DNA of 40,148 nt from Chlamydiota bacterium (GTDB lineage: Bacteria > Chlamydiota > Chlamydiia > Chlamydiales > Parachlamydiaceae). The notes under the pieces are model-generated. The model had not been told where the DNA came from, did no database searches, and saw only the letters and a list, made by a program, of their open reading frames with translations. The translations under genes and the position numbers were made by a program. The stretch covers positions 1 to 40,148 of the forward strand of contig JABDEO010000004.1 of assembly GCA_013287015.1 (NCBI GenBank), in the 5' to 3' direction. Of the stretch, positions 8,033 to 29,002 are shown in pieces. Numbering within the stretch: position 1 is the first letter of the stretch; every line of letters begins with the position of its first letter.

Positions 8033-8060
8033 GTCAAGTTTTACAGCAAAAAAACTTGAC
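8033..8060. promoter_or_regulatory. Inverted repeat, putative AbiEi operator
   Basis: GTCAAGTTTT-acagcaaa-AAAACTTGAC, perfect 10-bp arms, just upstream of the likely antitoxin start at 8092. Confidence 0.7.
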
Positions 8061-8091
8061 TAAAAAGGGAAAATTGGGTGATAATAAGGTT

Positions 8092-8844
8092 ATGAAGAAC
8101 AGACAAAAGAAAATCAGATCCGATATTTGCAGCATTGCTAAGACCGTCCGAGACAAAATTGAATCGGGCGGAGAACGGGTTTGGCGACTAACCGATTTTG
8201 AAAACATGCCATTTACAGCGGTTGCACAGACTTTATCTCGCTTATTTCGCCTAGGTATGATTCAAAGACTCGGTAAAGGGCTATACTACAAACCAAGGCA
8301 AACAGCATTTGGACCAAGTAAACCAAACCCTAGTCAATTATGCTCTTTACCCATCTTGAGAAAAGGGATATTTCCTGCTGGTTGTGCGGCGGCAAATCTC
8401 CTCGGGTTTAGCACGCAGCATGCAGCAAAATTAGAAGTCGCGACAAATGGCCTTAGTTTACCGCGTTTACTTGTTGGTAAAGAAACAATCATACACACGC
8501 GAAGGCCAGAATCGTGGCAAGAACTTTCATATAAAGATGCAGCCATTCTAGACTTCCTTCGTCAAAGAGGATCATCTAGCGAATTTTCCCCTGAAGAAAC
8601 CGTTGATAAGCTGTTAAAACACTTTCAAGAAGCCGGGCGATTTAAACATTTACTTCAGATCGCAATATCAGAACCTCCACGTGTCCGCGCAATACTTGGC
8701 GCCATAGGACAGGAACTTGGATATTCCGAAAAGCAGCTCATCGATTTACGAAAAAGCTTGAATACTCTCTCTAGATTTGATTTTGGACACTTAATTGCGC
8801 TGAAATATGCCAAGCAATGGCAAGCAAAGGAACGTAAACCTTGA
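8092..8844 (+). CDS. AbiEi/DUF6088-like antitoxin (type IV TA family)
   Basis: Track ORF starts at TTG 8056, but ATG 8092 is more likely. N-terminal wHTH 'DFENMPFTAVAQTLSRLFRLGMIQRLGKGLYYKPR' followed by 'GIFPAGCAAANLLGFSTQ' typical of the family. Confidence 0.82.
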   Translation: MKNRQKKIRSDICSIAKTVRDKIESGGERVWRLTDFENMPFTAVAQTLSRLFRLGMIQRLGKGLYYKPRQTAFGPSKPNPSQLCSLPILRKGIFPAGCAAANLLGFSTQHAAKLEVATNGLSLPRLLVGKETIIHTRRPESWQELSYKDAAILDFLRQRGSSSEFSPEETVDKLLKHFQEAGRFKHLLQIAISEPPRVRAILGAIGQELGYSEKQLIDLRKSLNTLSRFDFGHLIALKYAKQWQAKERKP

Positions 8845-8948: not shown

Positions 8949-9404
8949 TTACTCTAAAACTTCGACAGGATCGTATTTCATTTCATTTTGATCTAATAAA
9001 GAAAAGACTTCTTCTTTAAACAACTTGGCTTTTTTGATTCTTTCGATCAAATCTCCAACTTCATCTACACCAACAGTAAATCCAAAATCAGATTTCTGCC
9101 ATTCGAATCTTTCAATTTCAGGAAAATTTGTCCGTATCCATAATAAAGATGCAACTTTCAGATTTGTGATCAAATCAAAAAATATTGTATCTGGTGCAAA
9201 TTTTATTACCAATTGGGTATGATCACAAAACACACTTCCACCTATGAGATGACATCCTTCATTTAATGTCAAATTACATAAATAATCGTAAAGATACGGG
9301 ACAACAGAAGGCGTTATAAGTGGTCTTTGACTCATTGTCGACCATAAAAGATGCACATACATCTCATGATTGATTTCATCTTCATCATGCTCTTTCATAA
9401 ACAC
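8949..9404 (-). CDS. IS200-like/RAYT-type Y1 transposase-fold protein lacking catalytic residues
   Basis: 'HLLWSTMSQRPLITPSVVPYLYDYL...GCHLIGGSVFCDHTQLVIKF...FEWQKSDFGFTVG' follows the Y1_Tnp family pattern with HUH changed to HTQ. Confidence 0.7.
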   Translation of the reverse strand: MFMKEHDEDEINHEMYVHLLWSTMSQRPLITPSVVPYLYDYLCNLTLNEGCHLIGGSVFCDHTQLVIKFAPDTIFFDLITNLKVASLLWIRTNFPEIERFEWQKSDFGFTVGVDEVGDLIERIKKAKLFKEEVFSLLDQNEMKYDPVEVLE

Positions 9405-9445: not shown

Positions 9446-9652
9446 CTACTTATTTGATGATGGTTTCACCCTTTTTGCTCGGATAGGAACTCTAACATAT
9501 TTGTATGCTGGTTTGATCTCTTTAATCTTTCCACCTTCTTGTACGACTAATGGTATCCCTGTTCTAATAGAAAGGTCTATTGCTCGTTCCACGCCTTTTT
9601 TATGGGCATCTAATAGGATCTCAAGAATGTCTGATTTACGTTTGCTTGGCAT
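9446..9652 (-). CDS. Small basic protein overlapping the zeta-like gene (possible TA partner)
   Basis: 68 aa MPSKRKSDILEILLDAHKKGVERAIDLSIRTGIPLVVQEGGKIKEI...; its ATG lies inside the end of the zeta-like reading frame. Confidence 0.6.
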   Translation of the reverse strand: MPSKRKSDILEILLDAHKKGVERAIDLSIRTGIPLVVQEGGKIKEIKPAYKYVRVPIRAKRVKPSSNK

Positions 9653-10391
9653 GTGCTACCTCTTGAATCTCTTTCCAAATAATAGGCTCTTCAATTTTTA
9701 ATTCATCAACTGAGTGCTTGCTCGCAATCACTTTATTTAACCCTGCTATCGAGTTATCTAATATGAGCGCTTTATCGGCTAGTGGAAGATAGTGTTTTAT
9801 GAGATTTTTCAACCCACTATAATATCGTCTTCTTATTGGCCTTGTTCACCTTTACTAAGGAGGAACTCAGTCACCTCTCTGTGTGCTCTGTGATCTCTGT
9901 GGTTGATAAAAAAGCTTGAAACGTTTTTATCAACCACAGAGACCACAGAGCACACAGAGAGGGGATTCTAGTGACCGAAAAGGTGAACAAGGCCTTCTTA
10001 TTATGTCCTCTGGAACATGATGACCACCCTGCTTCACTCGACGTGCAACTCGCTCAACTGCCAAATCTGGGCTAGGAAGCCATAAAAACATCAAATTAAC
10101 TTCGTATCCCTTTGTTTGAGCTTCTTTAAGATGCTTGATATAATTTGTACCTGATCCCGTTGTTTCAAAGGCAAAATTCATATTGGATTTAAGCAATTCC
10201 CCTAGTCTTTTCAACATCAATTTACTAGCTGTTAAAGACATGCTTTCAGGATGCATGGGAGCCAATCCTCGTGCAATCTCATCTGCATTAATAAACTCAT
10301 CGAGCATGGCGATATTCGATATCAACGACATTGCTGTAGTCGTTTTACCAGCCCCATTCGGTCCAGCAATCATAAAAATTTTCTTGTTCAT
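9636..10391 (-). pseudogene. Zeta-toxin-like P-loop kinase interrupted by a MITE
   Basis: N-terminal 'MNKKIFMIAGPNGAGKTTTAMSLI...FAFETTGSG' to 'VPEDIIRR'. After removing the 157-bp insert plus one TSD the frame continues '...IIRRRYYSGLKNLIKHYLPLADKALILDNSIAGLNKVIASKHSVDELKIEEPIIWKEIQEVAHAKQT*'. Confidence 0.85.
9838..9994. mobile_element. 157-bp MITE-like element with 8-bp TSD
   Basis: Terminal inverted repeats GGCCTTGTTCACC...GGTGAACAAGGCC with long internal complementarity (CTCTCTGTGTGCTCTGTG.TCTCTGTGGTTGATAAAA / TTTTATCAACCACAGAGACCACAGAGCACACAGAGAG); flanking TTCTTATT at 9830-9837 and 9995-10002. Confidence 0.88.
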
Positions 10392-12891: not shown

Positions 12892-12937
12892 CAAATATGC
12901 AATGAGAAACTAAACATAAAATTTGAGAAGAAGAGGT

Positions 12938-13273
12938 ATGAATATGAAGTGGTTAATGGCGCTATTTTTGGTGATTTGGGCAGTTCCAGCAACATTGCCA
13001 GCAGGTATCGTTGTTAAAAATAATACACAAGCGCACGAGGCGACGTGGAAAAATTTTAATGATGCGGTTGATGATAAAATAAAAGAGATTAAGGGAGTTG
13101 TTTTTGGACCTGTCGTCAGGATTCTTGGTGTTTTAGGGATCGCTTATGGAGTGTGCTGTTTAGCCATGGGAAAAACACAGCAAATGATGACATATGCCGG
13201 CATTGGTCTTCTGCTCAATCTTATTCCATTTTTTATAGACTCCGTTTTCAGCGCAATGTTGCCTGGGATGTAA
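12938..13273 (+). CDS. TraA/VirB2-like pilin candidate
   Basis: Signal peptide 'MNMKWLMALFLVIWAVPATLPAG', two C-terminal hydrophobic helices, directly before traL; track ORF starts at TTG 12923 but ATG 12938 follows an SD. Confidence 0.65.
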   Translation: MNMKWLMALFLVIWAVPATLPAGIVVKNNTQAHEATWKNFNDAVDDKIKEIKGVVFGPVVRILGVLGIAYGVCCLAMGKTQQMMTYAGIGLLLNLIPFFIDSVFSAMLPGM

Positions 13274-13274
13274 A

Positions 13275-13535
13275 ATGGAGATCAAAAAAACGTTGGATAA
13301 TATGCCGCGTCTTGTTTTTTGGCGCATTGACGATGCATTAATGTTTCTTATCCTATTTTCGCTGGGCGTTCTATTTGGCAGCCTTTTGCTAATAGGATTC
13401 GGTATTTTCTGCACGTGGTTATATAGGCGCATTCGAAAGCGAAATGGAAATATAAATTTCAAGGCAATGGCTTACTGGTTATTTGGCGCTAGTTATCCCA
13501 ATATCCCTTCACACATTAGAAGAATCCGCCGATGA
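13275..13535 (+). CDS. traL: TraL, F-type conjugation protein
   Basis: 86 aa; 'MPRLVFWRIDDALMFLILFSLGVLFGS'; order. Confidence 0.85.
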   Translation: MEIKKTLDNMPRLVFWRIDDALMFLILFSLGVLFGSLLLIGFGIFCTWLYRRIRKRNGNINFKAMAYWLFGASYPNIPSHIRRIRR

Positions 13536-14089
13536 ATGAAATTATCAGGGAATACACGATACGGTCACTGACGGTGCAACGCAATATTTCGTTAGCCATT
13601 GTTTTTTTTGTGCTGTTGCTGGCCTTGATCTTAAGCGCATTGTTATTTAGAAAAACTGAACGCGTGATTGTGATTCCGGCGACTCTGGAAAAAGAATTTT
13701 GGGTGGAAGGATTAGCTGTATCGCCGACATATCTAGAACAGATGGGATGTTTTGTGGGCGATCTTTTGTTAACGCGTTCTCCGGCTTCCGCTGATATGCA
13801 ATTGACAATCTTAATGCGTCAGGTGGATCCGGCTTTTGCGAGTATTCTGAGCAGCAAGTTGGCTTCTGAATTGGATAAGCTCAAGAAAGATAATGCTTCG
13901 TATGTGTTTTTTCGAACAAAAGTTATCGTGTCTCCACAAAATAACAGTGTGATTTTGGAGGGTGACCGTACGCTTCTTTTAGGCGATAAGGCGCTTTCCA
14001 CTGTACGTGAAAGTTATCGGTTGGGCTTCACAAATTTTGGCGGACGTCTTCTTTTAGCTTCGATAGAACGAGGAGAGAATACGAAATGA
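13532..14089 (+). CDS. traE: TraE, F-type conjugation protein
   Basis: 185 aa, N-terminal TM, 'ERVIVIPATLEKEFWVEGLAVSPTYLEQMGCFVGDLLLTRSPASA'; position. Confidence 0.88.
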   Translation: MNEIIREYTIRSLTVQRNISLAIVFFVLLLALILSALLFRKTERVIVIPATLEKEFWVEGLAVSPTYLEQMGCFVGDLLLTRSPASADMQLTILMRQVDPAFASILSSKLASELDKLKKDNASYVFFRTKVIVSPQNNSVILEGDRTLLLGDKALSTVRESYRLGFTNFGGRLLLASIERGENTK

Positions 14090-14793
14090 TAAAACTATTT
14101 ATGACTTTTTGTTTGTTTCTTTCTAACGTTGCGCTTTTTAGCGCACAGTATATCCCAATGGATCCAACGGCGGTTATTTCTGTTAATCTTTCTTCAAATC
14201 ACCACAATCGCATTGGCATTATTGGAGATCGCATTAAAAAAGCCTTTTTTCGAAATAGCAATCTTTCTGTGGATGTGGAAGAGGATAGCGGTCAGCTGTT
14301 TGTACAAGCGATGAAACCACATTGTCCGAATACAACTCTCTCATTAGTTTCAACTTCTGGGGTCGTTCAAGATTTAGAATTGTGTTTCTTTGATGGTTCT
14401 TCCGAAATTGTGCTTTTACAGCCTGTGTTAAGAGAAATCGATGACAGTATGGATGGCGTAAGAACATGTAATTCAGTTTGCGAGGCATTGGACGACCCTC
14501 TTACCAACTTAGTTGATGGAGTCATTAAGGGGATTATTCCTGATGGGTACACTCTTTTTGAAGATCAAGATTCTCCTGTTAAAATTTGTAAAGAATTGAA
14601 GATGCAACGCATCAGTCGCCTTGTTGGAGACAAACAAATTGTTTTCTTTTATCGACTTCAAAACATTTCTAAAAAGTCTAAATGCGTCACTGAGTGTCAG
14701 GTTAATATATTGGATGGCGATTGGGTTTTTTTGGATCGATATAAGCTAAATCCGGATGAGTGCGCCATTGTTTTAATTGGATGTTTGAGATAG
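14086..14793 (+). CDS. traK: TraK, secretin-like core protein
   Basis: 235 aa, signal peptide, position between traE and traB, beta-rich periplasmic protein. Confidence 0.8.
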   Translation: MIKLFMTFCLFLSNVALFSAQYIPMDPTAVISVNLSSNHHNRIGIIGDRIKKAFFRNSNLSVDVEEDSGQLFVQAMKPHCPNTTLSLVSTSGVVQDLELCFFDGSSEIVLLQPVLREIDDSMDGVRTCNSVCEALDDPLTNLVDGVIKGIIPDGYTLFEDQDSPVKICKELKMQRISRLVGDKQIVFFYRLQNISKKSKCVTECQVNILDGDWVFLDRYKLNPDECAIVLIGCLR

Positions 14794-14809
14794 CGATTAG
14801 GAGAATGGA

Positions 14810-16042
14810 ATGAACGAAGAACATCAAACAAAACAAAAGAGATTAAGATATTTAGTTGCAGCTTGCGCAGGAGTGATTTTTTTAGCTGCATCAGCCTTTA
14901 TCATCCGAGACTATTTGCATGAGACAGAAAATCAAAAGAGCTCCTACATATCAACTCCACACCTGCCTCTTGATGGAATTGATCCTAAAGAAATTTGGGT
15001 GGATCAGATGCGCTCTGAAAATGAAGTTGTACAAGGAAAGGTCGAATTCATTCAGGAAATGTTTCTTAAACGCATTCAAGAAGAAGGCGAACGAGAATAC
15101 TCGACGCAAAATGAAATCACAGCATTGCGTAGTGAGATTGATAAGTTGCGATCTGAACTAAAGAAAAATGAATCGCCAGAGGCTCCTATTCGTGAAAACT
15201 TGCGTGAGGAATTACGAAACGCTTCTGTCAATTATCAGCAGGGTGGATGGGACCCATTTGCAAATTCTCAGCCATCAATACCCCCACAAGAAGTATTCAT
15301 GCCTCTTACTTTAGTCTCATGTCCGGAACCGACAAATCTCCATCATATCAATCGCACCATTCCAGCTGGAACGACTATAAAAGCCATCCTATTATCCAGC
15401 GTGGATATGCCATGCGGTGTTAAGGGCAGTACTGATCCGCTTCCGGTAAAATTGCGCATCATTGCCGATGGCCGTTTGCCGCATGAGGTGCGCGCTCGTT
15501 TAAAAAGCGGCATCGTAACAGCTTGTGTTTATGGAGATTTATCAAGTGAACGCGTTTATTTCCGCCTTGAAAAATTGACTCAAGTCAGGGCCGATGGACA
15601 TTACATCGAAACACAAGTTGCAGGATATGTTTCAGGTGAAGACGGAAAATATGGCTTACGCGGAACCGTTGTAGATAAAAGCTCTCTCCTTATTGAGAAT
15701 GCTTTGATGAGTGGATTTTTATCTGGCGCAAGCAATTTTTTCGAAGCGGCTGCCATGTCTCGTCTCTATCCGGTTACAGGATTAAATGGATATCCTGCCG
15801 AAGATTGTCAAACAAGTTGGAAACAATCCGCTGGACAGCTGGCTATAGCGGGCGGATCTGAAGGCGTTACAAACGCTCTAGACGCATTAACAGACTATTT
15901 TATTAGGAGGGCTGAGCAGTTGCGCCCAGTGATCCAAATAACTCCAGGGCGGATAGTGGACATCACGTTTTCTGATTGCGCTGATCTGGGTGATTTGTAT
16001 ACGCACGAAAGGGTGCGGAACATGGGGAGAGCAGGGGCATGA
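14810..16042 (+). CDS. traB: TraB, VirB10-like scaffold
   Basis: 410 aa, N-terminal TM, coiled coil, 'IPAGTTIKAILLSSVDMPCGV', 'SERVYFRLEKLTQV'. Confidence 0.9.
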   Translation: MNEEHQTKQKRLRYLVAACAGVIFLAASAFIIRDYLHETENQKSSYISTPHLPLDGIDPKEIWVDQMRSENEVVQGKVEFIQEMFLKRIQEEGEREYSTQNEITALRSEIDKLRSELKKNESPEAPIRENLREELRNASVNYQQGGWDPFANSQPSIPPQEVFMPLTLVSCPEPTNLHHINRTIPAGTTIKAILLSSVDMPCGVKGSTDPLPVKLRIIADGRLPHEVRARLKSGIVTACVYGDLSSERVYFRLEKLTQVRADGHYIETQVAGYVSGEDGKYGLRGTVVDKSSLLIENALMSGFLSGASNFFEAAAMSRLYPVTGLNGYPAEDCQTSWKQSAGQLAIAGGSEGVTNALDALTDYFIRRAEQLRPVIQITPGRIVDITFSDCADLGDLYTHERVRNMGRAGA

Positions 16043-16704
16043 AGATCACCAAGGCCTTGATATTGATAGGTGTTTGTGGAACAGCTGCAGCTCTCATTTT
16101 TCCCATTTTCAGCAAGCATGAACCTCAAAAAACAGTCCCCACACATAATCAAGAACCTGTGCAAATATCAAGAGAGCAGGTAGAAGAATTTCGTAAATTA
16201 GATTCAATCTATTGCATCAACTATGGTAGAAAGGACGCTCCCGTTAAAATTATTGAATTTTTTTCATTTCAGTGTCCCCACTGCGTCAGATTATTTAGAG
16301 AGGACTTTGGAAACATTAAAGAGGAACTGATTGATACAGGAAAGGTTCACTTTGAATTTCATCCGGTTCCACAGGATTTGCCTACAGTGCAGGCGATGAT
16401 CTGTTTTGAACAACTGGAGGAAAATGAAAAATGTTTATTTTTAGAGGTTATGTTTGAAGAAGCGACTCCATCGGATCCAGAACTCATGTCCACATTGATG
16501 ATGACGGCAATGAACGTGTTTAAAAAACCATTGGATAAGCTCAAGGATCATCAATTCTTACAAGATCATCATGTTTTTGAAGCGATCTATCCTTTTCTAA
16601 AACAGGAGAAAATCTTTGCGGTACCAACAGTAGAGATCAATGGTCGTTTGTTTTCAAAAGAGATTCCAACCTATCAATTCATTAAATCATTTATTGAGGA
16701 TTAA
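16039..16704 (+). CDS. DsbA-like thiol:disulfide oxidoreductase within tra operon
   Basis: 221 aa; 'VKIIEFFSFQCPHCVRLFREDF' with CPHC active site and cis-Pro 'AVPTVEING'. Confidence 0.88.
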   Translation: MKITKALILIGVCGTAAALIFPIFSKHEPQKTVPTHNQEPVQISREQVEEFRKLDSIYCINYGRKDAPVKIIEFFSFQCPHCVRLFREDFGNIKEELIDTGKVHFEFHPVPQDLPTVQAMICFEQLEENEKCLFLEVMFEEATPSDPELMSTLMMTAMNVFKKPLDKLKDHQFLQDHHVFEAIYPFLKQEKIFAVPTVEINGRLFSKEIPTYQFIKSFIED

Positions 16705-16711
16705 AAAAGAG

Positions 16712-17032
16712 ATGCGCCGTTTATTTTGTTTATTAGGTCTTTTTTTAACCTCTTGCAGCATGTACAAAAGAGACTTTGATTGTCCTCCCGGAGAGGGTGT
16801 TCCCTGCACGCCTGTGACGACATTGGAGAAAATGATTTTAGAATCCCCATGCGGTGAAGATTCATTTACAGGGTGCGTTCCTAAGTTGGTCAATATGTAT
16901 AGCTCCCCATCTTGCAAAAAGGCTTATTCAACCGATTCTGAGCCATTCCAAAGACGCATTTGGCTCGCTCCTAAGGATGGATGTTCCACGTATATTTATT
17001 TCCATAAGGAGATGTTATGCGAGGAGCAATAG
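16712..17032 (+). CDS. traV: TraV lipoprotein
   Basis: 'MRRLFCLLGLFLTSCSMYKRDFDCPPGEGVPCTPVTTLEKMI': lipobox plus Cys pattern; internal ATG in the 16640 ORF. Confidence 0.8.
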   Translation: MRRLFCLLGLFLTSCSMYKRDFDCPPGEGVPCTPVTTLEKMILESPCGEDSFTGCVPKLVNMYSSPSCKKAYSTDSEPFQRRIWLAPKDGCSTYIYFHKEMLCEEQ

Positions 17033-19473
17033 ATGCATTTAGCAAGACCGGACATCGGATCCTGCGTTTTTTTGGGGAAAACAGACCCTTTAATCCAGAA
17101 TATGGGAGCTTAACAGATCTTATAAGCGCAGATACAATGGCCAAGCTGCTGCCTTTTGAAAGTTTTAATGTAGGCCTTGGACTTTTTGTGAATCAGCATA
17201 GCGTTGGATTTGTCATTGAAGCCATGCCGGTAATTGGAGGAGATGAGCATTATCAAAAGCTTTTAAAAAGCATATTTGAAGACTTCTTTTACGAAAACGC
17301 TTCAGTGCAATTTTTACTGCTGGCCGATCATCGCATACGCCCTTTTCTAAGTTGGTGGTCAAAGGGAAATCGAGAAGGCATTTCCAATGAAATTTCCGCT
17401 CATCGTCAAAAGCACTTTGAAAAGGGGGGATTTGCAGCCCGAAATTTTAGATTTTTTATATCTTACAGCCTGCCATACAAAAGCGAATATGCTGAAGAAG
17501 CAAAGCTTTTAGGCGACATGCGGCAAAGAATGTTAAAACTTTTTCAAACCTTTACCCGTGCACACGGCATGGGTCCGCAGGCTTTTTTAGAAACCGCCGG
17601 ATGGATGTTGAATCCTAATCTAGATGCAGAATTAAAAAGACGCCGTCATAACATTTTAGATGATCTCTCCACTCAGCTTATGATGGGCGGCGAAACGAGG
17701 GTGGAGAAAGACGCTATTTATTTTGATGAGGAAGCGGCCTTTAAAAGCTTTTATATATCGGATATGCCTGACAATTGGTCGCCGATGGCGATGCAAAATC
17801 TGATTGGCGATCCAGCAAGAGACAATTACCGCTTGGACTTTCCATTTTTTTTACACTACGGAGTGCATTTTCCTAAGCAATCAAAGGCTGAAAATAACTT
17901 TAATGCACGTTCGCGATTGATTGAAAACCAAGGAAAGTCAGGCTACCTCATAAGAATGATTCCAGAATTGGCAGCCGAGATGAGGGAATGCGATAGCGTG
18001 CGCCGTGAACTTACTCAAGGCGCTAAATTCGTCTGGACACAATTTAGCTGTGGATTTTGGACTCAAAAAAATGGGCTTGCCGACGCAGAGCAAAGCTTGC
18101 GAAATCTATTCAAGGCCCATCAATTTGATCTGGTTGAAAATCGTTACACTCATTTTCCCCATCTGATATCAATTCTGCCTACAGCATGGGGAGAGATGGC
18201 GATGGAGTTGAAAAATATGAATGTTTTAAAAACCACACTCTCTACGGAATGTCAATTGTTTATCCCGATACAAGGAGAGTGGTCTGGAACGAATACGCCA
18301 GGGATGCTTTTTATTGGAAGACGCGGCCAAATGTTCAATTGGAATCCATTCGACAACAAAGCTGGAAATTACAACACCATCGTAGCAGGTCGAAGTGGAG
18401 GAGGTAAATCCGTTTTTATGCAGGACATGCTGGTCAATGGTTTACGCATGGGTGTGCAGATCTATATTTTGGATGTAGGACGCAGTTATAAAAAACTATG
18501 CGATTTAGTGGAAGGACAGGAGATCGAATTTTCAAAGAAATCAAATATATGTCTAAATCCATTCTCCAAACTCAAAATAGACGATCAAGAGGAGAAAGAG
18601 GTCGCATTTAGCATGTTAAAGTCCCTCATTGCATGCATGGCGTCGACAGGCAACGAAGAAAAGCATGAGGGATCTTTAATTGAGATTGCGATTCAAAAAG
18701 CATGGGAACAGAAGGGACGAAAAGCCACCATTACAGATGTCGCCGAAGCGCTTAAAGAAATTTCAGACGAAAAAGCCCGCATTTTAAGCATTATGCTGAC
18801 TCCTTATACGAAGAATGGGATGTATGCCAAATATTTCGAAGGAGAGAGCAATGTCGATTTCAAAAATCCGTTTGTTGTCATTGAATTAGAAGAACTGAAA
18901 GGAAAAAAAGATCTGCAAGCAGTGATTCTACAATTGTTTATCATGGATATCGCCAATCGCGCTTTTCTGGGAGATAGAAAAACGCCTTTCTATATATGCA
19001 TTGATGAAGCATGGGATCTGCTGCGCGCGCCTCAAACAGGTGAGTTTATCGAAACCCTTGCAAGGCGTTTACGTAAATATCGCGGGGCTCTCATTGTGGG
19101 AACGCAAAGAATTGAAGACTTTTTTACGACGCCTGGAGCGAAGGCCGCTTTTGAAAATTCGGATTGGATGTGCTTTTTATCCCAAAAACAAGGGACAACC
19201 CAGCAATTAGCCGACAGTGGAAAATTGCCGCGCAATCCAGGACTTCTCAAGGCCATAGAAAGCGTTGTGATGCAGCAAGGAAATTATAGTGAAATCGTCA
19301 TATGCGACGCCAACAACAACTATTCCATCGGAAGGTTAAAGCTGGATCCCTTTTCCAATCTATTGTACAGCACCCAGCCAGAAGATTACACGCGAATTAA
19401 GGAGCTTACTGAAAAAGGTTTTAGCGTCTCTCAAGCGATTAAGGAATTACTGAAAAAGGGGGCGGTGGCGTGA
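17017..19473 (+). CDS. traC: TraC, VirB4-like ATPase
   Basis: 818 aa; Walker A 'GRSGGGKSVFMQDML', Walker B 'FYICIDEAWDLL'. Confidence 0.95.
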   Translation: MRGAIDAFSKTGHRILRFFGENRPFNPEYGSLTDLISADTMAKLLPFESFNVGLGLFVNQHSVGFVIEAMPVIGGDEHYQKLLKSIFEDFFYENASVQFLLLADHRIRPFLSWWSKGNREGISNEISAHRQKHFEKGGFAARNFRFFISYSLPYKSEYAEEAKLLGDMRQRMLKLFQTFTRAHGMGPQAFLETAGWMLNPNLDAELKRRRHNILDDLSTQLMMGGETRVEKDAIYFDEEAAFKSFYISDMPDNWSPMAMQNLIGDPARDNYRLDFPFFLHYGVHFPKQSKAENNFNARSRLIENQGKSGYLIRMIPELAAEMRECDSVRRELTQGAKFVWTQFSCGFWTQKNGLADAEQSLRNLFKAHQFDLVENRYTHFPHLISILPTAWGEMAMELKNMNVLKTTLSTECQLFIPIQGEWSGTNTPGMLFIGRRGQMFNWNPFDNKAGNYNTIVAGRSGGGKSVFMQDMLVNGLRMGVQIYILDVGRSYKKLCDLVEGQEIEFSKKSNICLNPFSKLKIDDQEEKEVAFSMLKSLIACMASTGNEEKHEGSLIEIAIQKAWEQKGRKATITDVAEALKEISDEKARILSIMLTPYTKNGMYAKYFEGESNVDFKNPFVVIELEELKGKKDLQAVILQLFIMDIANRAFLGDRKTPFYICIDEAWDLLRAPQTGEFIETLARRLRKYRGALIVGTQRIEDFFTTPGAKAAFENSDWMCFLSQKQGTTQQLADSGKLPRNPGLLKAIESVVMQQGNYSEIVICDANNNYSIGRLKLDPFSNLLYSTQPEDYTRIKELTEKGFSVSQAIKELLKKGAVA

Positions 19474-19898
19474 AAGTCATTCAGGCGATTATTTTTTGTT
19501 CGATTGCATTATGTATAATCTTTCTTATTTGTGGGTATGGCATTCGCTATAATTCCAGTCAAAGCCTTCCTCAAAAACTGTATTTAGCTGTTCCAGCGAT
19601 TTCGCCAAAAATAGGACAAATCGTGACATTTTGCCTTCCTGCAAGCCAGGTCACTTTTGCCAAACTCATGATGGGATTGCCAGGGGACTTCATTGAAGTT
19701 AAAAATCAGAAAATTTACATAAATGGTTCTGAAAAAGGAGCCATTGTAGATGCGTTTACACCTATAGAGAGTGGCATCATCCCGGACGGGTTCTGTTTTG
19801 TACTTGGAATGCATCCTGAAAGTTTTGATTCACGCTATGCAGAATTCGGACTTGTTCCTCAAGACTCTATAAAAGAACAACTATGGCCTATTTTTTGA
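19470..19898 (+). CDS. S26 signal-peptidase-like TraF/TrhF-type protease
   Basis: 142 aa; 'NSSQSLPQKLY' Ser region, 'FAKLMMGLPGDFIEV' Lys region, 'ESFDSRYAEFGLVPQDSI'. Confidence 0.87.
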   Translation: MKVIQAIIFCSIALCIIFLICGYGIRYNSSQSLPQKLYLAVPAISPKIGQIVTFCLPASQVTFAKLMMGLPGDFIEVKNQKIYINGSEKGAIVDAFTPIESGIIPDGFCFVLGMHPESFDSRYAEFGLVPQDSIKEQLWPIF

Positions 19899-20467
19899 CT
19901 TTGCTGCTGTTTTGCTCGGCAAATTTAAGCGCAAAAGACTTTGGGGTATTTGGAGCGACTTTTGTCATTCAAGAGGAGGATTTAATTGTGGTTTTACAGG
20001 AACGCTTAGCAAAAGCAAAGCTCGAAGAAAAACAGATTTTAGAATTGCAGGACGCATTCATTGAGTCTGTTAAAAATCCTAAGGGAAAGAAGTTGCCAAA
20101 GGCAATCTATCCACGCATCTTTGAATTCGATCCAACGCTTTGCATGCAAGAGGATATCAAAGATCAAGATGGCAAAATAATCGTTTCAAAGGGGATGCAA
20201 TTTAATCCCTTGAATTCAATTGTGTTGCGCAATGGCTTGCTATTTTTTGACGGCAACGACAAAAAGCAGTTGGCATGGGCAAAACAATTACAGGGCCTCT
20301 GGGTTTTGACTGCAGGAAATCCATTAGAAGTGGAAAGCAGAGAAAATCGACCTGTATATTTTGATCAAGCGGGATATTTAACAAGCAAACTTAAAATCGA
20401 ATCATTACCGGCAAGAGTCACGCAAAAAGGGTTAAAGCTGAAGATCGAGGAAATTCCATGCTTTTAA
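19883..20467 (+). CDS. traW: TraW
   Basis: 194 aa; signal peptide, 'DFGVFGATFVIQEEDLIVVLQERL', 'NPLNSIVLRNGLLFFDGNDKKQLAWAKQL'. Confidence 0.9.
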   Translation: MAYFLTLLLFCSANLSAKDFGVFGATFVIQEEDLIVVLQERLAKAKLEEKQILELQDAFIESVKNPKGKKLPKAIYPRIFEFDPTLCMQEDIKDQDGKIIVSKGMQFNPLNSIVLRNGLLFFDGNDKKQLAWAKQLQGLWVLTAGNPLEVESRENRPVYFDQAGYLTSKLKIESLPARVTQKGLKLKIEEIPCF

Positions 20468-20973
20468 TGTGCCTTTTTCCATTACTGGTTACTTCACTTG
20501 CCCTTGCTGAAAATCAAAAGGACTTGTTAAAGGAAGCGTTGGCAAATGTGAAACCCTCGACTAATCAAGAGAAGCAAGATTTGGAAAAAGGCAAATGTGG
20601 GAATGCATTATCTGTAAAGGCGGATCAACAAATAACCTTATATGTATTTGTCAGTTTTAGTTTGCCTGAGGAGACATGGTTAACGCTTTCAAAAGAAGTG
20701 GAGAAGGTGGGCGGCGTATTAGTTTTGCGCGGATTGCCGGAAAATAGCTTTAATCGTCTCGCAGTAAAAATGCACGCTTTGCGAAAACAAGGCGTTCATG
20801 TCGCAGTGCAGATAGATCCACGACTCTTTACTAAGTTTGGCGTAGAAAAAGTCCCCTGTTTTGTGACTGTAGATGAAGAAAAGTTTGACAAGTTGAGCGG
20901 AAATGTATCTTTGGCATTCGCCTTGCGGAAGATGGAAACAAAAAGCTCTCAAACATTGAGAAAACTCCTATGA
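20458..20973 (+). CDS. trbC: TrbC, F-type
   Basis: 171 aa; 'LYVFVSFSLPEETWLTLSKEVEKVGGVLVLRGLPENSF', 'QIDPRLFTKFGVEKVPCFV'. Confidence 0.9.
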   Translation: MLLMCLFPLLVTSLALAENQKDLLKEALANVKPSTNQEKQDLEKGKCGNALSVKADQQITLYVFVSFSLPEETWLTLSKEVEKVGGVLVLRGLPENSFNRLAVKMHALRKQGVHVAVQIDPRLFTKFGVEKVPCFVTVDEEKFDKLSGNVSLAFALRKMETKSSQTLRKLL

Positions 20974-21947
20974 AATGCCTTTTCATTTTTCTTTTTATTT
21001 CGATGCGAGTTTATGGGGAAATGGTCAACCCAATTACAGATGTATGCTGGGAGTGTATTTTTCCAATTACATTGGGAGGAATAAATGTAACGCCCAGCAT
21101 TCAAGATTTTTCAAGTTATAATACCCCAATTTGCCTCTGCGCTGGAACGCCGCCTAAAATCGGCATACCGATTACTTTTTGGGAACCTGCGCGCATGGTG
21201 GATGTGACGCGACAAGCCTATAAACTTGTTGGTCTTGGCGGCATTAAACTAGGAACGGCAAACTTAAAAAATCGCGGCAGCGTAAGCTCTATCGCCGAAA
21301 CACCTGCTCAAACAAGCTTTCATCATGTGCATTATTACGTTTATCCTATTTTAAGTTTGCTTGGCATTCTCACAGATTTTCAATGTGTAGAAACCGGAGA
21401 ATTGGATGTCGCTTATATGTCGGAATTTGACCCGTTATGGAGTGATGATAATTTGATGAATATTTTTAATCCTGAAGCGCATGCGTTCTCTAATCCTCTT
21501 GCACAGCTTGCTTGCATCGCAGATTGCGCCAAGGCCTCCCTAAATAAGCCGACTGATGAGCTGTTTTGGTGCGCTGGTTGTCAAGGATCTCTTTATCCCT
21601 TTGGAGGCAATATTGCGCATCATACAGGGCATTTGCAAGCAAGTTCCTTAATTGTACATCGTTGTTTGGCCCGACTGCACCGCATGGGAGTCGTTAAAGG
21701 GTATAATGATAGCGATTTTTGCGAAGCGCGCATTATGCCGGTTATTAAAAAGAGCCTTTATAAGACGCAAATTGTTAGGCCAATCCCACAAACCAGCGGG
21801 GAGTGTCAAGCGCTGGGAAAAAGCGATCAACTATGGGGGATAGGGAAAACCTATCCAGTTGGCGGAGAGGATGATTTCGTTTATTTAATTTGGGTGAAAA
21901 AACAATGTTGTTTGGACGCAGTGCGCACTACGCTTTTGTCCTATTAG
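20970..21947 (+). CDS. traU: TraU
   Basis: 325 aa; 'NPITDVCWECIFPITLGGINV', Cys-rich, 'CLCAGTPPKIGIPITFWEPARMVDVTR'. Confidence 0.95.
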   Translation: MKCLFIFLFISMRVYGEMVNPITDVCWECIFPITLGGINVTPSIQDFSSYNTPICLCAGTPPKIGIPITFWEPARMVDVTRQAYKLVGLGGIKLGTANLKNRGSVSSIAETPAQTSFHHVHYYVYPILSLLGILTDFQCVETGELDVAYMSEFDPLWSDDNLMNIFNPEAHAFSNPLAQLACIADCAKASLNKPTDELFWCAGCQGSLYPFGGNIAHHTGHLQASSLIVHRCLARLHRMGVVKGYNDSDFCEARIMPVIKKSLYKTQIVRPIPQTSGECQALGKSDQLWGIGKTYPVGGEDDFVYLIWVKKQCCLDAVRTTLLSY

Positions 21948-23521
21948 CAATGACGGCGATTGCTGCTAATGAAAACCTTGACCATTATCGGAAACAAGGA
22001 AAATCATTGGGATGGTCATCGCAACGCTCAGAGCTATCAAAAGAGGAACAAGAGGCAATTACTCCAAGAGACCTTCGTGGTCAAACATTTGATGGAGAAC
22101 AAGCGCGCAAACAACTCGATAGCACGATGCATCAGGAGGTCAAAAATCTTCCATCTCAAGATCTTGATCCGAATATTCTTTCCGTGGTGGAAAATGTCGA
22201 ACATTCAATGAAAAATCAGAAAGGGATCGATAAACCTGAGGCTGAAATACAAGAAACAATTGAAAAATGCCTCATAGAGAACGAAATAGTTTCAGTGACT
22301 GTTAACCATAATTTGGCTGTTGAAGTTATTCATACGCCAAGAGTTTTTGCAAAATATAAAGTTTGCAAAGGTCATCGCAGTGAAATAAAGTGTGACGGTT
22401 TATTTGAACCTATTGAAATCTACATATCAAAGAAACGAGAATTTTCATTAGATCCTACTATAAAAACATATGATGTAACATTTAAGGAAAGGGGGACTAA
22501 ACATCACGATTTGATAATCAGCTGTTGGACACACTTAGATGATGCCCATACTTGTGAATCCTCTCTAGAATATGAAAGAGAAATCTCCGCCGAAAGCTGG
22601 GCGGAAATTGATGTTTGGGAAACGCCGGAAGATTTATTAGACAGTCTCAATTGTACATTAATTAATACGACATTTGGACTTCCCGAAACACGCATCATTG
22701 AAGGGCATGAAGTGAAACGCCCACACTGGAATAAATTTCTTCACCTGCAATGCATCAATCCTCTCCAAAATGAATGTCATTTTCTTAAAGAAAAAAACTG
22801 CATTTTTTCATCTGAAAGTTGCATAAAACAGATTGGATCTCAGTGTTTGATCTGGGAAAAGCTTTTTAAATGCCGCACACGCCAAGGCGACATAGCCATG
22901 GAGCCTAAAGACACTTATGGAGTGGATCCCAAACTATGGTCAACTGAGTATAAACCTAATCAATCGTTTCCTGATGTAGCGACAAAACTGGCGGTATTTG
23001 ACGAGATGAAAAAGGAGCTTCAGAAGGCCAACGCGACAAGCGGTCAGAGCGTTCGTCTTTTTACAGGATCTGAACAGCGATGCAGCAAGAGTCTCGCTGA
23101 AAATATCATGTATGATTGTTGCTTTGACATGGATGGCTTCACTACGCAAGTCAAGTTAAGTAAATGCACCGCCGACGAGATTGCGTTAGCTGAAAGTCGT
23201 CAAAAAGGTTTGTGTCATTATTTGGGAAAGAAAAAAGAAAAATTTCTAAATCTTTGGGTGAGTAGAACAGAACATATTTTTTGCGTATTTCCGAGTAAAC
23301 TTTCTCGCGTGTTTCAAGAGGAGGCTCGCAAGCAACTGAATATCGCATGGGGAGACGTTCATAATCCGAATTGTCGAGGATTGACTCAAGATGAGATAAA
23401 AAGGTTGGACTTCTCCAAACTTAATCTTTTAGAAGCCTTTGAAGCGCCTAAGAACATTGACAGTGAAGAGAAAGTTAAAAAGATCGAAGAACGTTTAAAA
23501 CAACGCATCGAGGCTTTGTGA
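21890..23521 (+). CDS. traN: TraN, mating-pair stabilisation protein
   Basis: 543 aa, Cys-rich, 'SEQRCSKSLAENIMYDCCFDMDGF...' and position after traU; start codon uncertain. Confidence 0.88.
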   Translation: MGEKTMLFGRSAHYAFVLLAMTAIAANENLDHYRKQGKSLGWSSQRSELSKEEQEAITPRDLRGQTFDGEQARKQLDSTMHQEVKNLPSQDLDPNILSVVENVEHSMKNQKGIDKPEAEIQETIEKCLIENEIVSVTVNHNLAVEVIHTPRVFAKYKVCKGHRSEIKCDGLFEPIEIYISKKREFSLDPTIKTYDVTFKERGTKHHDLIISCWTHLDDAHTCESSLEYEREISAESWAEIDVWETPEDLLDSLNCTLINTTFGLPETRIIEGHEVKRPHWNKFLHLQCINPLQNECHFLKEKNCIFSSESCIKQIGSQCLIWEKLFKCRTRQGDIAMEPKDTYGVDPKLWSTEYKPNQSFPDVATKLAVFDEMKKELQKANATSGQSVRLFTGSEQRCSKSLAENIMYDCCFDMDGFTTQVKLSKCTADEIALAESRQKGLCHYLGKKKEKFLNLWVSRTEHIFCVFPSKLSRVFQEEARKQLNIAWGDVHNPNCRGLTQDEIKRLDFSKLNLLEAFEAPKNIDSEEKVKKIEERLKQRIEAL

Positions 23522-24252
23522 AGCAGTCCATAATCGTTCTCTGTTTAATGTTTGGCTTTGTAAACGCCAGCGAAAAGGAACAAACAGCTTGGCAAAAACG
23601 ACATGCTGAAGGGTGGGCTTGGTATCATAATTTTGAAAAACCTGAAGAGCCAGATGAGGCAAGCGCCGAACCTAAAGATCCGATTGTTATTCTAAATATT
23701 GCCAAGGAGGAGCTGGAACGAACTTTAGCAAAAGCGATGCTAGAGCCAACTAAGGAAAATGTATTAGCCTATATGGTATTGCAAAACAAATGGGTGAATC
23801 AATCTAAAGACTTCTCTCACTTATGGCAACAAAATATTCTGGAACACCCGGAAGTTTACTCTTTGATGCCTACAACCCAATATGGCGTCCAAGTAAGAAA
23901 AAATGTCGATTCTGCGGCTCGGAATAAGCTGATTAAAAAGCTTTCAAAAAGCAGTATGTTGCTTTTCTTTTACGAAGGAGAAAATGCTTTTTCACAGGCC
24001 TTTTCAAGAGTTGTAAGAGAGTTTTCCAAACAACACAACTGGATGGTCAAACCAGTTTCAATTGATGGCGTGATTGCGAAAGATTTTCCAAGATCAATAA
24101 GGGATGCAAGCATTGCCGAGGAAATGCAAGTGAAAACCTTTCCTGCGCTTTTTCTTATGGATGTCAGAACTCTAACAGCGATACCGCTTGCTTTTGGAAT
24201 GGCTACGATTAGTCAGATTGAAGAAAACATCGTCATGCAATTTGAGGAATAG
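23518..24252 (+). CDS. traF: TraF, conjugal pilus assembly, thioredoxin-like fold
   Basis: 244 aa; 'WAWYHNFEKPEEP', 'LLFFYEGENAFSQAFSRVVREF' (no CxxC). Confidence 0.88.
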   Translation: MKQSIIVLCLMFGFVNASEKEQTAWQKRHAEGWAWYHNFEKPEEPDEASAEPKDPIVILNIAKEELERTLAKAMLEPTKENVLAYMVLQNKWVNQSKDFSHLWQQNILEHPEVYSLMPTTQYGVQVRKNVDSAARNKLIKKLSKSSMLLFFYEGENAFSQAFSRVVREFSKQHNWMVKPVSIDGVIAKDFPRSIRDASIAEEMQVKTFPALFLMDVRTLTAIPLAFGMATISQIEENIVMQFEE

Positions 24253-24254
24253 TC

Positions 24255-25592
24255 ATGAGAAGATTTTTATTTACGTTCTGTTTGTTCATCTCTATTCATG
24301 AATATGGATTTGGCAAAATTACAGTTCCTGAACGTCTTTTCCAAATGACCGATTCAGAAGTTAATGTATCGGAAGGAGATCTATTATACAAAAGCCAAGC
24401 TGCTGGATACTATACGGGCGGCGGCGGCATGGTTGTACGATCTCCGGTCAAGTCAACCCAGTTTATGAGCGCTCATATTCCACAAATTCAAGCTGGCTGC
24501 GGTGGAATAGATATTTACACTGGCGGCTTTTCCTTTATCACGGGAAAACAACTTGTTGAAACGCTGCAAACAATTTCATCCAACGCCGCTGGCTTTGCTT
24601 TTATGCTTGGCTTAGAATCTGTTTCGCCAACAATTAACAACACCATGCGCCAGATGCAAAGCTGGGCCAATACAATTAATGGCATCGGCATTAACAGTTG
24701 TGAGACTGCAGCCGAGCTAGTTGGATCTGTTTGGCCTGCCAATGACATGGCAAGCCAACATATTTGCCGAACAGCAAGCACTACTGGCCCATTATACAAA
24801 GATTATATTGAAGGGCGCCACAATTGCTCCAGCGAATCAGGCAAAAAAAAAGCAAGTAGTCTAGTGAAATCCTATCTTCCACTGGAAAGCGAATACAATA
24901 TTGCTTGGGAAGCTCTCATGATCCAGCCATTCTTTAAAAACCAGGCAAATAAAGAACTGGCGGAATTGTACATGACATTAGTTGGCACAGTCGTTGTCAA
25001 AGAAGAATACATAAAAGACTATTTTTCAAAAGCCGAAGATAACGAGTTTCTGACGCATTTACTCGAAGGAGGAAAAATTAAAAAATACACATGCCAAGAT
25101 GAAAAGTGTTTGGTTGTATCAGAAAGTGAACATGACATTGCCATTTCAGATTCATGGTTTGCAAAAATTCGCAGAACACTCTCAAATATGCAAGAAAAAA
25201 TTATCAATGATGAACCATTAGACAGCACAGAAAAAGGATTGCTTCAAACTAGCCGCCTCCCATTATTTAAAATTGTCAATGTTTTGTGCGCCTATCATCG
25301 AGGACCTTGTGCAATGGAATTAGATGGATTAGTGGATATCATCTCTTGGGATGTTTTAGCACAGGTCGTTAACGAGGCATTAGACACTGTACGGAGAGGA
25401 TGTATGCAGCTGCGTCATAAAAGCATGTATGCAATAACAATCGACGACTATTTAAACGACTTAGAACGCGTTCAAAAAGTTGTTCGGAGATATGAAGAGC
25501 ATGCCAAAAAGGGCATCGATTTAGAAATGCGATTAATTCAAAAGGTGCAACTTCTTGAAAAACAGATTAACTCACAAATTATGGTAAATTAA
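24255..25592 (+). CDS. traH: TraH
   Basis: 445 aa; 'YYTGGGGMVVRSPVKSTQFMSAHIPQIQAGCGGIDIYTGGFSFI'. Confidence 0.93.
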   Translation: MRRFLFTFCLFISIHEYGFGKITVPERLFQMTDSEVNVSEGDLLYKSQAAGYYTGGGGMVVRSPVKSTQFMSAHIPQIQAGCGGIDIYTGGFSFITGKQLVETLQTISSNAAGFAFMLGLESVSPTINNTMRQMQSWANTINGIGINSCETAAELVGSVWPANDMASQHICRTASTTGPLYKDYIEGRHNCSSESGKKKASSLVKSYLPLESEYNIAWEALMIQPFFKNQANKELAELYMTLVGTVVVKEEYIKDYFSKAEDNEFLTHLLEGGKIKKYTCQDEKCLVVSESEHDIAISDSWFAKIRRTLSNMQEKIINDEPLDSTEKGLLQTSRLPLFKIVNVLCAYHRGPCAMELDGLVDIISWDVLAQVVNEALDTVRRGCMQLRHKSMYAITIDDYLNDLERVQKVVRRYEEHAKKGIDLEMRLIQKVQLLEKQINSQIMVN

Positions 25593-26315
25593 ATGAAAAA
25601 AACTAAAATCTCATTTTTTTTAATTTTTGTATTTATTGTTTCCACTCAAAACATGGAAGCCTTTCTCGACATATTTACAACTCATGGAAAGCGCAACAAT
25701 CAGATTGATGCGATTATCCGTGAAGCGCTAGACACGGCAAACAACAAATGGAAGAGGAGTCTGGTACCCATTCCAGAAGAATTTGAAAGCACATGCGCCT
25801 ATATACCAGAGCATGAAGAGCGTAAAACATCTAAAGTCGTCTTCAATTTTAGTGAATTGCATCATGCAAAACATCCAAAAATTCAAACGTTGAATGATTT
25901 TTTATTAGATGATCAGAAAACGGCAGAAAAAATCGGTTCAATAATAATGAAGAACCACAATCGCGACAGAACGGTCACAAAAGAAAGATCCTCTTGCACT
26001 ACTAAGCTTATCTCTCATACAGAAAAGGCAATTCTATTTGAGTTCCTTAAATTCAATGCTAAACAGAACTGTAAATCCATTTCTAAGCAAAATCTCTTTG
26101 GTGAAAGAGAAGAAGAAATTGTTTGCATTGGACCAGAAATTATCAGTGAGATTCCTTCTGAGTATTACATAACGTGGATTGTAGATCTGGGAGAACATGA
26201 ATTTCGACAATATCTATTTTGGACAAAGGATCGACAACCTACAGAGGCAGAGAGAACTTATCTTTTAGAATTATTTCAATATATGGAGGCGCAGATAAAA
26301 AATGTCAATGACTGA
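25593..26315 (+). CDS. Hypothetical exported protein between traH and traG
   Basis: 240 aa with N-terminal signal segment 'KISFFLIFVFIVSTQNMEA'; adjacent to traH, overlaps traG. Confidence 0.7.
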   Translation: MKKTKISFFLIFVFIVSTQNMEAFLDIFTTHGKRNNQIDAIIREALDTANNKWKRSLVPIPEEFESTCAYIPEHEERKTSKVVFNFSELHHAKHPKIQTLNDFLLDDQKTAEKIGSIIMKNHNRDRTVTKERSSCTTKLISHTEKAILFEFLKFNAKQNCKSISKQNLFGEREEEIVCIGPEIISEIPSEYYITWIVDLGEHEFRQYLFWTKDRQPTEAERTYLLELFQYMEAQIKNVND

Positions 26316-28992
26316 CGTGGAGGTGATTACCTATGGGGGTGGAGATCTTCTGAGAATGGTTTTCAATGCAGTTGCGATGCTTTTTTACGGCAGTAAAAAT
26401 AACAGCAGTTTTGTACAACCTCTTTGCATAATATCAGCCATGATTGGCGGAGCTTGGGGTGTTTCGCGCTGTTTTTTTCAGTCATATACAGAAGCTTTTC
26501 TTACAAAGTATATGCTGCCGTTATTGGCAATTCCCGCCCTCTTAATTGTTCCACAAGCTAGAGTGCATGTCATTGACAAGCTCAATGACAAACCTCTTGT
26601 GGTCGACCACGTTCCCTTGTTATTCGCAAAAATCGCCGGTATGACCAGCTATTGGGGTTTTAGAATGACTCAAGCAATTGAAAATGTCATGCATACGCCA
26701 AACGATGTCAAATATTGCAAAACAGGAATGATTTTTGGCTCTGATGCAGCATTGGATTTTTCTCGTCTAAAACTTAATAATGGAACTCTTGCTCAAAATC
26801 TTCATCATTTCACACAGCAATGCATCATCTATGACATCGCTTTGGGTCGTTATACAATTGATCAGCTGCGCAGATCGTCACAGCTTTTGACATTTTTAAA
26901 AAATAATACAAGTAAAGTAAGAATGATACCCTACGTTGATCCGGACAGTAAAAAAATGGAGTATCTCACATGCATAGAGTCCGTCGATAAAATGGGGCCT
27001 TTGTTCAATAAAGAAGTGGAATATTATACAAAACATGAAGTTTTAAAGAAAATCCCTATCACATATCAAACACTGCTCAATTTTAAACAACAAACAGAGG
27101 ATAAAATATCGAACCAAATCGCAAATGCAACGAGTGGGGATGTGAATGGCCTCTGTAAAGACATCATTGTGGTAAATGCCTTTAATGACGCCACAACTCG
27201 CTTTGCAACAGAGCGAGCAAAGGATAACCAGCGCAACATCTATCAGACAGCAGGGTCATTAGCTGGCAACAGTCTAGTGACGATGCGTATCGTATTTGAA
27301 GCGTTAATTTATGCCTCTTTTGCACTCATTCTTCCTCTTTCATTATTGCCTGGAGGAATTAAATTTATTGGCAGCTGGGTGTTTCTTAATATCTGGATCC
27401 AATTATGGCCGCCCCTTTATGGAATTTTAAATTACATTACTGTTTTATGCGCCCAAAAGTATGCCAGCAGCGTGATGGGTGGTCTTTCGGAAGGATTTAG
27501 CCTTTTTACAAGCGTTGGTTTTCAAGATATTGCGTTTGACACAGCTGCGCTTAGTGGATTTCTTTCTCTCTCTGTACCTGTCATTTCTTTTTACATTCTC
27601 CAAAATGTACAATCGCTTGTTCATCTTACTGGGTCTTTGATGACGCCAGCGCATTCTTCAGCCATTGCCGCTTCCTCTGAATTAAGCACAGGCAACTATT
27701 CATTTGCAAATACAAGCATGGGACAAGTTTCTTACGAAAATCAAACAGCGTTTCAACAGAATACCGCTCCTACTCTTTCATCTGGATTTTTTACAGACAA
27801 CCATGGCACGCACCAAATCAAGTATGGTGAGAACCATCTAACGGTTAATCAGGATCCGTCAAATCTAAATACGAGCATCTCCACAGCTGAGGCCTATACC
27901 AACAGCTTACAAAACGCTCAACAAAATGCAGAGACGCAAGTTAACTCGAAACAAGGAATGTATACAGAAACGAGAGGAATTGCCGAACGCAACGTCGCGG
28001 ACATCGTCCAACATGTAGCCAGCTCTGATATGTACTCCAATGGTTATAGTACAAGTCAAACTCAAGCGGCGCAAGAGAGCGCCAATTGGATCACCAATGC
28101 TGCGGAAAGTTGGGGGCATCAACATGGGGTTAGCGGCAGGGAAAGCCTTGAATATTTTTCTAGTCTGGGAATGGATTGGCCTATAGGTATCGTTGCAAGA
28201 GGCGGACACAGCGCCAATTGCAGCACGTTAAGCGATGAAGCTAGGCAATCTGCAGAAAATATTTTCATTTCAAAGGATTTTCAAGAGCATTACCAGCGAG
28301 CCTTAAATTGCACCAATAGCGAATCGACAAATTTTATGACAGATGAGGGTAAACGATTAGTCGAAAACTATGCGACCTCAATGGAAAAACTCAAATCAAG
28401 TCAGGAACAATTTAGCACGGCGCACAGCGAACTTAACCAAATTTCAGAAAATCTCAGCTATGTTCAAAGCAATACTAATACCGTGAATACCAATTTGAAT
28501 ACAGAATTTGGCAACTGGTTGAATGAGCGAGGCGCGCTTGGAACCCTTTTTGATAAAAAACGTACACAAGAGTTGAATACACTTAGAGATGCATTTATTG
28601 AAGAAAAATGCCAGTCAGAAATAGGGAATTTAAAGCATTTTAATGATCCAAGCGTTTCGTCCAGTCCACTCCCAAATATTAATAATGGAGACTGGGAAGG
28701 CTTAAAAGACAACTTACAGAACAAGGCCTCAGAAATTGGTCTTTCCCACAGTCAGCATGGCCAACAGGTCATTCGTCAATATGAAGATCAGGCATCGATT
28801 GTTTCACATAAGCTATCTTCACGTGATCAAGAACTCAATGACTCCCATAAACAACATAAAGAAGGCTTTGATGCAGAGCACAAGCGATTACTCTTGTCTC
28901 GATTGAACGAAAGAACGGGAGAAAATATACAAAGCGTCTTTAACGATCCAGGAATCAATTGGTCCTGGTTTGATGATTACGCAAATCCTTAA
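26302..28992 (+). CDS. traG: TraG, mating-pair stabilisation protein
   Basis: 896 aa; N-terminal multi-TM domain, long Gln/Ser/Asn-rich C-terminal region; position. Confidence 0.9.
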   Translation: MSMTDVEVITYGGGDLLRMVFNAVAMLFYGSKNNSSFVQPLCIISAMIGGAWGVSRCFFQSYTEAFLTKYMLPLLAIPALLIVPQARVHVIDKLNDKPLVVDHVPLLFAKIAGMTSYWGFRMTQAIENVMHTPNDVKYCKTGMIFGSDAALDFSRLKLNNGTLAQNLHHFTQQCIIYDIALGRYTIDQLRRSSQLLTFLKNNTSKVRMIPYVDPDSKKMEYLTCIESVDKMGPLFNKEVEYYTKHEVLKKIPITYQTLLNFKQQTEDKISNQIANATSGDVNGLCKDIIVVNAFNDATTRFATERAKDNQRNIYQTAGSLAGNSLVTMRIVFEALIYASFALILPLSLLPGGIKFIGSWVFLNIWIQLWPPLYGILNYITVLCAQKYASSVMGGLSEGFSLFTSVGFQDIAFDTAALSGFLSLSVPVISFYILQNVQSLVHLTGSLMTPAHSSAIAASSELSTGNYSFANTSMGQVSYENQTAFQQNTAPTLSSGFFTDNHGTHQIKYGENHLTVNQDPSNLNTSISTAEAYTNSLQNAQQNAETQVNSKQGMYTETRGIAERNVADIVQHVASSDMYSNGYSTSQTQAAQESANWITNAAESWGHQHGVSGRESLEYFSSLGMDWPIGIVARGGHSANCSTLSDEARQSAENIFISKDFQEHYQRALNCTNSESTNFMTDEGKRLVENYATSMEKLKSSQEQFSTAHSELNQISENLSYVQSNTNTVNTNLNTEFGNWLNERGALGTLFDKKRTQELNTLRDAFIEEKCQSEIGNLKHFNDPSVSSSPLPNINNGDWEGLKDNLQNKASEIGLSHSQHGQQVIRQYEDQASIVSHKLSSRDQELNDSHKQHKEGFDAEHKRLLLSRLNERTGENIQSVFNDPGINWSWFDDYANP

Positions 28993-29002
28993 TGGAAAAA
29001 TC

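What the first reader, a model, noticed from the sequence alone, without database searches (positions are those of the whole stretch)
9636..10391. Zeta-toxin-like gene precisely split by a MITE; excision restores the frame
Removing 9838-9994 and one 8-bp TSD joins 'VPEDIIRR' to 'RYYSGLKNLIKHYLPLADKALILDNS', a canonical zeta-family continuation. This is a recent insertional inactivation, and excision could reactivate the toxin. The upstream half still encodes the Walker A region fused to MITE-encoded 'PCSPFRSLESPLCVLCGLCG'.
Basis: seen in the sequence. Interest (0 to 1): 0.6.

Follow-up and report, generated by a model that had tools for sequence, protein, structure and literature searches.

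The report
Transposable element split a toxin-like gene
In an environmental relative of Chlamydia, a short hairpin-shaped mobile DNA element jumped recently into a zeta-toxin-like gene, cutting its protein short while the small partner (presumed antitoxin) gene beside it stayed intact; this is a clean but ordinary case of gene inactivation.

Summary
A 157-bp palindromic element (9838-9994, 16-bp perfect terminal inverted repeats GGCCTTGTTCACCTTT) lies inside a zeta-like P-loop kinase gene (9636-10391, minus strand), flanked by a perfect 8-bp duplication TTCTTATT. About 40 places in the same genome hold this family; of 29 paired copies, 13 have a perfect 8-bp duplication (1.7% expected from shuffled flanks). 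Uninterrupted homologues occur in related Chlamydiota, and as a 73% identical paralogue in this genome. Neither half has any other stop or frameshift, and both match the homologues about equally (81%/72% to the closest), so the insertion is recent. The modelled fold of the closest intact homologue has PezT and zeta as best PDB matches. This is the only paired copy shown to interrupt a recognisable gene. 'Excision could reactivate' is possible but weak: 157+8 = 165 bp keeps the frame, stop codons in the element truncate the protein, and excision leaving both duplications would shift the frame. An ordinary event with good anatomy.

The parts
10003..10391 (-). N-terminal half of the zeta-like P-loop kinase gene (Walker A GPNGAGKTT, NADEIARGL, FETT, GGHHVPED)
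   Evidence: Pfam Zeta_toxin 38.0 bits, AAA_33 38.2 bits; 69-81% identical to intact homologues
9930..10391 (-). Truncated ORF now read: 132 native codons plus 21 residues from the element
9995..10002 (.). Target-site duplication copy, TTCTTATT
9838..9994 (.). Palindromic MITE, 157 bp
   Evidence: about 40 places in own genome; 29 paired copies, 13 perfect 8-bp TSDs; hairpin z = -17; 5/157 substitutions from consensus
9838..9853 (+). Terminal inverted repeat GGCCTTGTTCACCTTT
9979..9994 (-). Terminal inverted repeat GGCCTTGTTCACCTTT
9830..9837 (.). Target-site duplication copy, TTCTTATT
9636..9836 (-). C-terminal part of the zeta-like gene, open to its stop, no convincing start of its own
9446..9652 (-). 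Small partner gene (68 aa), presumed antitoxin, intact, overlaps the kinase gene's end
   Evidence: small ORF overlapping the kinase stop in 12 of 13 intact homologues; 54-71% identical to five of them; no Pfam match

Best explanation
The locus is a two-gene zeta-like toxin-antitoxin module (kinase first, small partner second, overlapping) in a Chlamydiota genome, recently knocked out by insertion of a non-autonomous palindromic transposable element. Shown: insertion with 8-bp duplication, truncation by stop codons in the element, intact sequence on both sides, intact partner gene, uninterrupted relatives. Inferred: an unseen transposase recognising GGCCTTGTTCACCTTT and making 8-bp staggered cuts inserted the element; the truncated protein lacks the conserved motif after IRR and the C-terminal third and is inactive; loss of the toxin was tolerated because the partner gene remained and an intact paralogous module exists elsewhere in the genome.
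For: Perfect TIRs and TSD; 13 of 29 paired copies with perfect 8-bp TSD against 1.7% expected from shuffled flanks. Intact homologues of 197-212 open codons without the element in G034, G005, G037, G006 and five named MAG loci, and an intact paralogue G000:C34:13899-14282. Both halves evolve alike: 81%/72% identity to L041, 75%/70% to L040, 73%/62% to the paralogue; dN is 0.11-0.18 against dS about 1 to L041. Model of the closest intact homologue (pLDDT 88, pTM 0.84) matches PezT 2p5t (E 3.8e-8) and zeta 1gvn and 3q8x first (TMq 0.58-0.73). Partner ORF conserved.
Against: Toxicity and antitoxin function of this family were not tested here. No transposase with these ends was found in the incomplete (64%) assembly. 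No reads, so fixation in the population is unknown. A profile of the family finds no zeta chain in the PDB by sequence, only weak P-loop kinases.
Confidence: 0.85

Rival explanations
1. Reversible switch: the element is lost precisely now and then (for example by replication slippage between the 8-bp repeats, helped by the hairpin), so the toxin gene is off in most cells and on in a few.
For: Near-perfect 157-bp palindrome between perfect 8-bp direct repeats, an arrangement in which slippage deletion is favoured (general knowledge).
Against: No empty allele of this locus seen. The same anatomy holds for at least 13 copies, nearly all outside recognisable genes, so nothing marks this one as a switch. 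Transposase excision that leaves both repeats would break the frame.
Confidence: 0.07
2. The kinase is not a toxin but a housekeeping or repair P-loop kinase (polynucleotide-kinase-like) with a small accessory protein; the insertion removed a dispensable enzyme.
For: Profile hits polynucleotide kinase Pnkp1 but no zeta chain by sequence; polynucleotide kinase structures appear from rank 9 by fold; partner has no known-family match.
Against: The top eight fold matches are all PezT/zeta chains; Pfam Zeta_toxin well above cut-off; two-gene overlapping layout; plasmid relatives annotated zeta toxin family; patchy presence, 16 of 39 genomes of the family with any match.
Confidence: 0.2
3. Assembly artefact or strain mixture: a palindromic repeat was misplaced here.
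For: Assembly of 194 contigs; palindromic repeats break assemblies, and several repeat ends lie near contig ends in relatives.
Against: The exact 8-bp duplication at both edges and natural continuation on both sides are not expected from misassembly; the copy differs from all others (97% at best).
Confidence: 0.04

Closest known systems
Bacterial MITEs (non-autonomous IS derivatives, e.g. MITEPsy2 of P. syringae, PMC6354349)
   Same: Short, no gene, terminal inverted repeats, target duplication, tens of copies, mostly outside genes
   Different: Near-complete palindrome with an inner heptamer array; the parent IS is not found
Zeta/PezT toxins with epsilon/PezA antitoxins (e.g. PMC3062530)
   Same: P-loop kinase fold, Walker A, Pfam Zeta_toxin, small partner gene
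   Different: Shorter (about 190-200 aa), toxin gene first, partner matches no Pfam family, sequence too distant to find zeta chains in the PDB
AvrRxo1-ORF1:ORF2 pair (PMC4938570)
   Same: Zeta-like fold (PDB fold hits)
   Different: Larger type III effector protein; only fold-level similarity here

Membership tests
MITE | Terminal inverted repeats | tested here: met
   16/16 bp
MITE | Target-site duplication of constant length | tested here: met
   8 bp; 13 of 29 paired copies perfect, 15 with at most one mismatch
MITE | Multiple dispersed copies, no transposase gene | tested here: met
   About 40 places in G000; 157 bp without a gene
MITE | Parent IS with the same ends | tested here: inconclusive
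   No transposase between TIRs in own assembly or at the relatives' sites inspected; assembly 64% complete
Zeta/PezT toxin family | P-loop kinase fold of zeta type | tested here: met
   Fold search on closest intact homologue: 2p5t, 1gvn, 3q8x first; Pfam Zeta_toxin on the window's N-half
Zeta/PezT toxin family | Partner antitoxin gene in the same operon | tested here: inconclusive
   Conserved overlapping small ORF, but no match to any Pfam family
Zeta/PezT toxin family | Phosphorylates UDP-N-acetylglucosamine and arrests growth | not testable with these tools
   Needs expression and enzyme assay of an intact natural homologue

The most novel reading that the evidence does not exclude
The hairpin core, heptamer CTCTGTG repeated every 9 bp with variable 2-bp spacers, is an independently conserved module: it recurs in hairpins with different outer ends across Chlamydiota and sporadically in other phyla, so mobile elements may have captured it, or a shared protein may recognise it.
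Probability: 0.3. Interest if true: 0.45.

Novelty: new member of a known kind. Interest (0 to 1): 0.27.

Why it matters
It gives a clean example of a toxin-like gene lost while its presumed antitoxin stays, in a Chlamydiota genome rich in MITEs, and it defines a conserved kinase/partner pair in Chlamydiota whose small partner has no known family. The mechanism itself, gene inactivation by a MITE, is well known.

Tried and rejected
Parent transposase: searched for TIRs with up to 3 mismatches in the genome and 1 mismatch in 39 family genomes, read flanks of unpaired ends, no transposase between ends. Y1 (IS200/RAYT) mobilisation, suggested by the Y1_Tnp-like gene 430 bp away: rejected, since Y1 enzymes make no target duplication (general knowledge) and that gene lacks the HUH motif. 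GxxExxY association, recalled from memory: one such gene in the genome, no element seen in the 1.6 kb read around it. Plasmid relatives of the element: none. Rfam: none. Literature for the heptamer: only a primer sequence from Bacteroides fragilis. Other copies with open frames on both sides: L022 lies between nuoB-like and nuoC-like genes and L007 lies past greA, so neither splits a recognisable gene; L008 second copy undecided.

Full report
OBSERVATION. The window is contig C4 of a 2.14-Mb, 64%-complete genome whose nearest named relatives for this gene are mostly Chlamydiae MAGs. On the minus strand, a P-loop kinase gene starts at 10391. Its frame runs 132 codons and then enters a 157-bp element at 9994, where it ends after 21 more residues at two consecutive stop codons. 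The element (9838-9994) begins and ends with GGCCTTGTTCACCTTT and is bordered by TTCTTATT on both sides. On the far side the kinase frame resumes and is open to a stop at 9636-9638.

THE ELEMENT. A search of the same genome gave matches at about 40 places, many on both strands because the element is a palindrome. Of 29 end-paired copies in fetched loci, 13 have a perfect 8-bp duplication and 15 have at most one mismatch; shuffling the pairing of flanks gives 1.7% and 2.6%. The duplication length is 8. The consensus is 157 bp, with 136 of 157 positions self-complementary; this copy has 5 substitutions from it and ranks among the least diverged. The single-stranded fold is -63.5 kcal/mol, z = -17. 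Two 49-bp forms holding little more than the two ends also exist. The ends occur at many places in G032 and in small numbers in several other genomes of the family. No transposase was found between such ends.

THE GENE. The N-half passes Pfam Zeta_toxin and AAA_33 cut-offs. Homologues without an insertion occur in relatives and as a paralogue in the same genome. Identity to the closest homologue L041 is 81% for the N-half and 72% for the C-half; the C-half is somewhat less conserved than the N-half against every homologue compared, and neither half has a stop or frameshift, so there is no sign of extra decay. The insertion falls inside a strongly conserved stretch (invariant GGH, PE, RR and G). 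The closest intact homologue was modelled with its natural relatives (pLDDT 88, pTM 0.84), and its best PDB matches are PezT and zeta, including the substrate-bound entry 3q8x. By sequence alone the family does not reach zeta chains in the PDB, so substrate and toxicity remain inferred.

THE PARTNER. A small ORF begins 8-23 bp before the end of the kinase gene in 12 of the 13 intact homologues examined; in the thirteenth (L058) the layout is less clear. In the window it is 9446-9652, 68 aa, intact, with an AGAGG sequence before its ATG. It has no Pfam match. Its place and conservation make it the likely antitoxin. Losing the toxin while keeping the antitoxin is the tolerable direction of loss (general knowledge). 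Translation of the kinase frame now ends about 280 bases before the partner's start, so partner expression may be lowered; this is inference.

CONTEXT OF OTHER COPIES. Comparing open frames on the two sides of each copy, without joining them, only four of 29 copies have long open frames on both sides in register: this one, L007, L008 (second copy) and L022. L022 lies between nuoB-like and nuoC-like genes and L007 beyond greA. So this is the only copy in the sample shown to interrupt a recognisable gene.

EXCISION. The element plus one duplication is 165 bp, 55 codons, so the downstream frame is kept and truncation is by stop codons in the element. Loss of the element alone, with both duplications left, would add 8 bp and shift the frame. 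Only precise loss of element plus one duplication would restore the gene. The hairpin between direct repeats makes rare slippage loss plausible (general knowledge), but no evidence of it was found.

COMPARISON AND VERDICT. The element meets the tested criteria for a MITE except that the parent IS is unknown. The gene is zeta-like by fold and Pfam, unproven by function. MITE insertion into a gene is a known kind of event, so interest is modest. The most unusual thing seen is the hairpin core: CTCTGTGNNCTCTGTGNNCTCTGTGG occurs exactly in 22 of 116 Chlamydiota genomes and in 2 of 20 genomes reached through loci of mostly other groups, with no hits of the reversed control pattern, in elements with different outer ends.

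Noticed in passing
9877-9902 and 9934-9959; also G000:C6:23555-24325: Conserved heptamer CTCTGTG at 9-bp period with variable 2-bp spacers, in hairpins with different ends across Chlamydiota; one locus holds a tandem array of alternating orientation.
   Followed up: partly
8949-9404: Y1_Tnp (IS200-like) gene with the HUH motif lost (DHTQL), possibly a domesticated or dead transposase; 8 Y1_Tnp matches in the genome.
   Followed up: partly
8056-8844: AbiEi-like antitoxin gene (PADLOC 5.5e-34); no AbiEii toxin gene was noticed directly beside it.
   Followed up: no
12923-30670: F-type conjugation gene cluster (TraC, TraG_N, TrwB_AAD_bind/TraG-D_C coupling protein), so the toxin module lies beside an apparently conjugative region.
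   Followed up: no
30909-32471: Transposase with DDE_Tnp_1 domain just after the conjugation genes.
   Followed up: no
G000:C9:6369-6417 and G000:C12:23-71: 49-bp forms of the element holding little more than its two ends.
   Followed up: no
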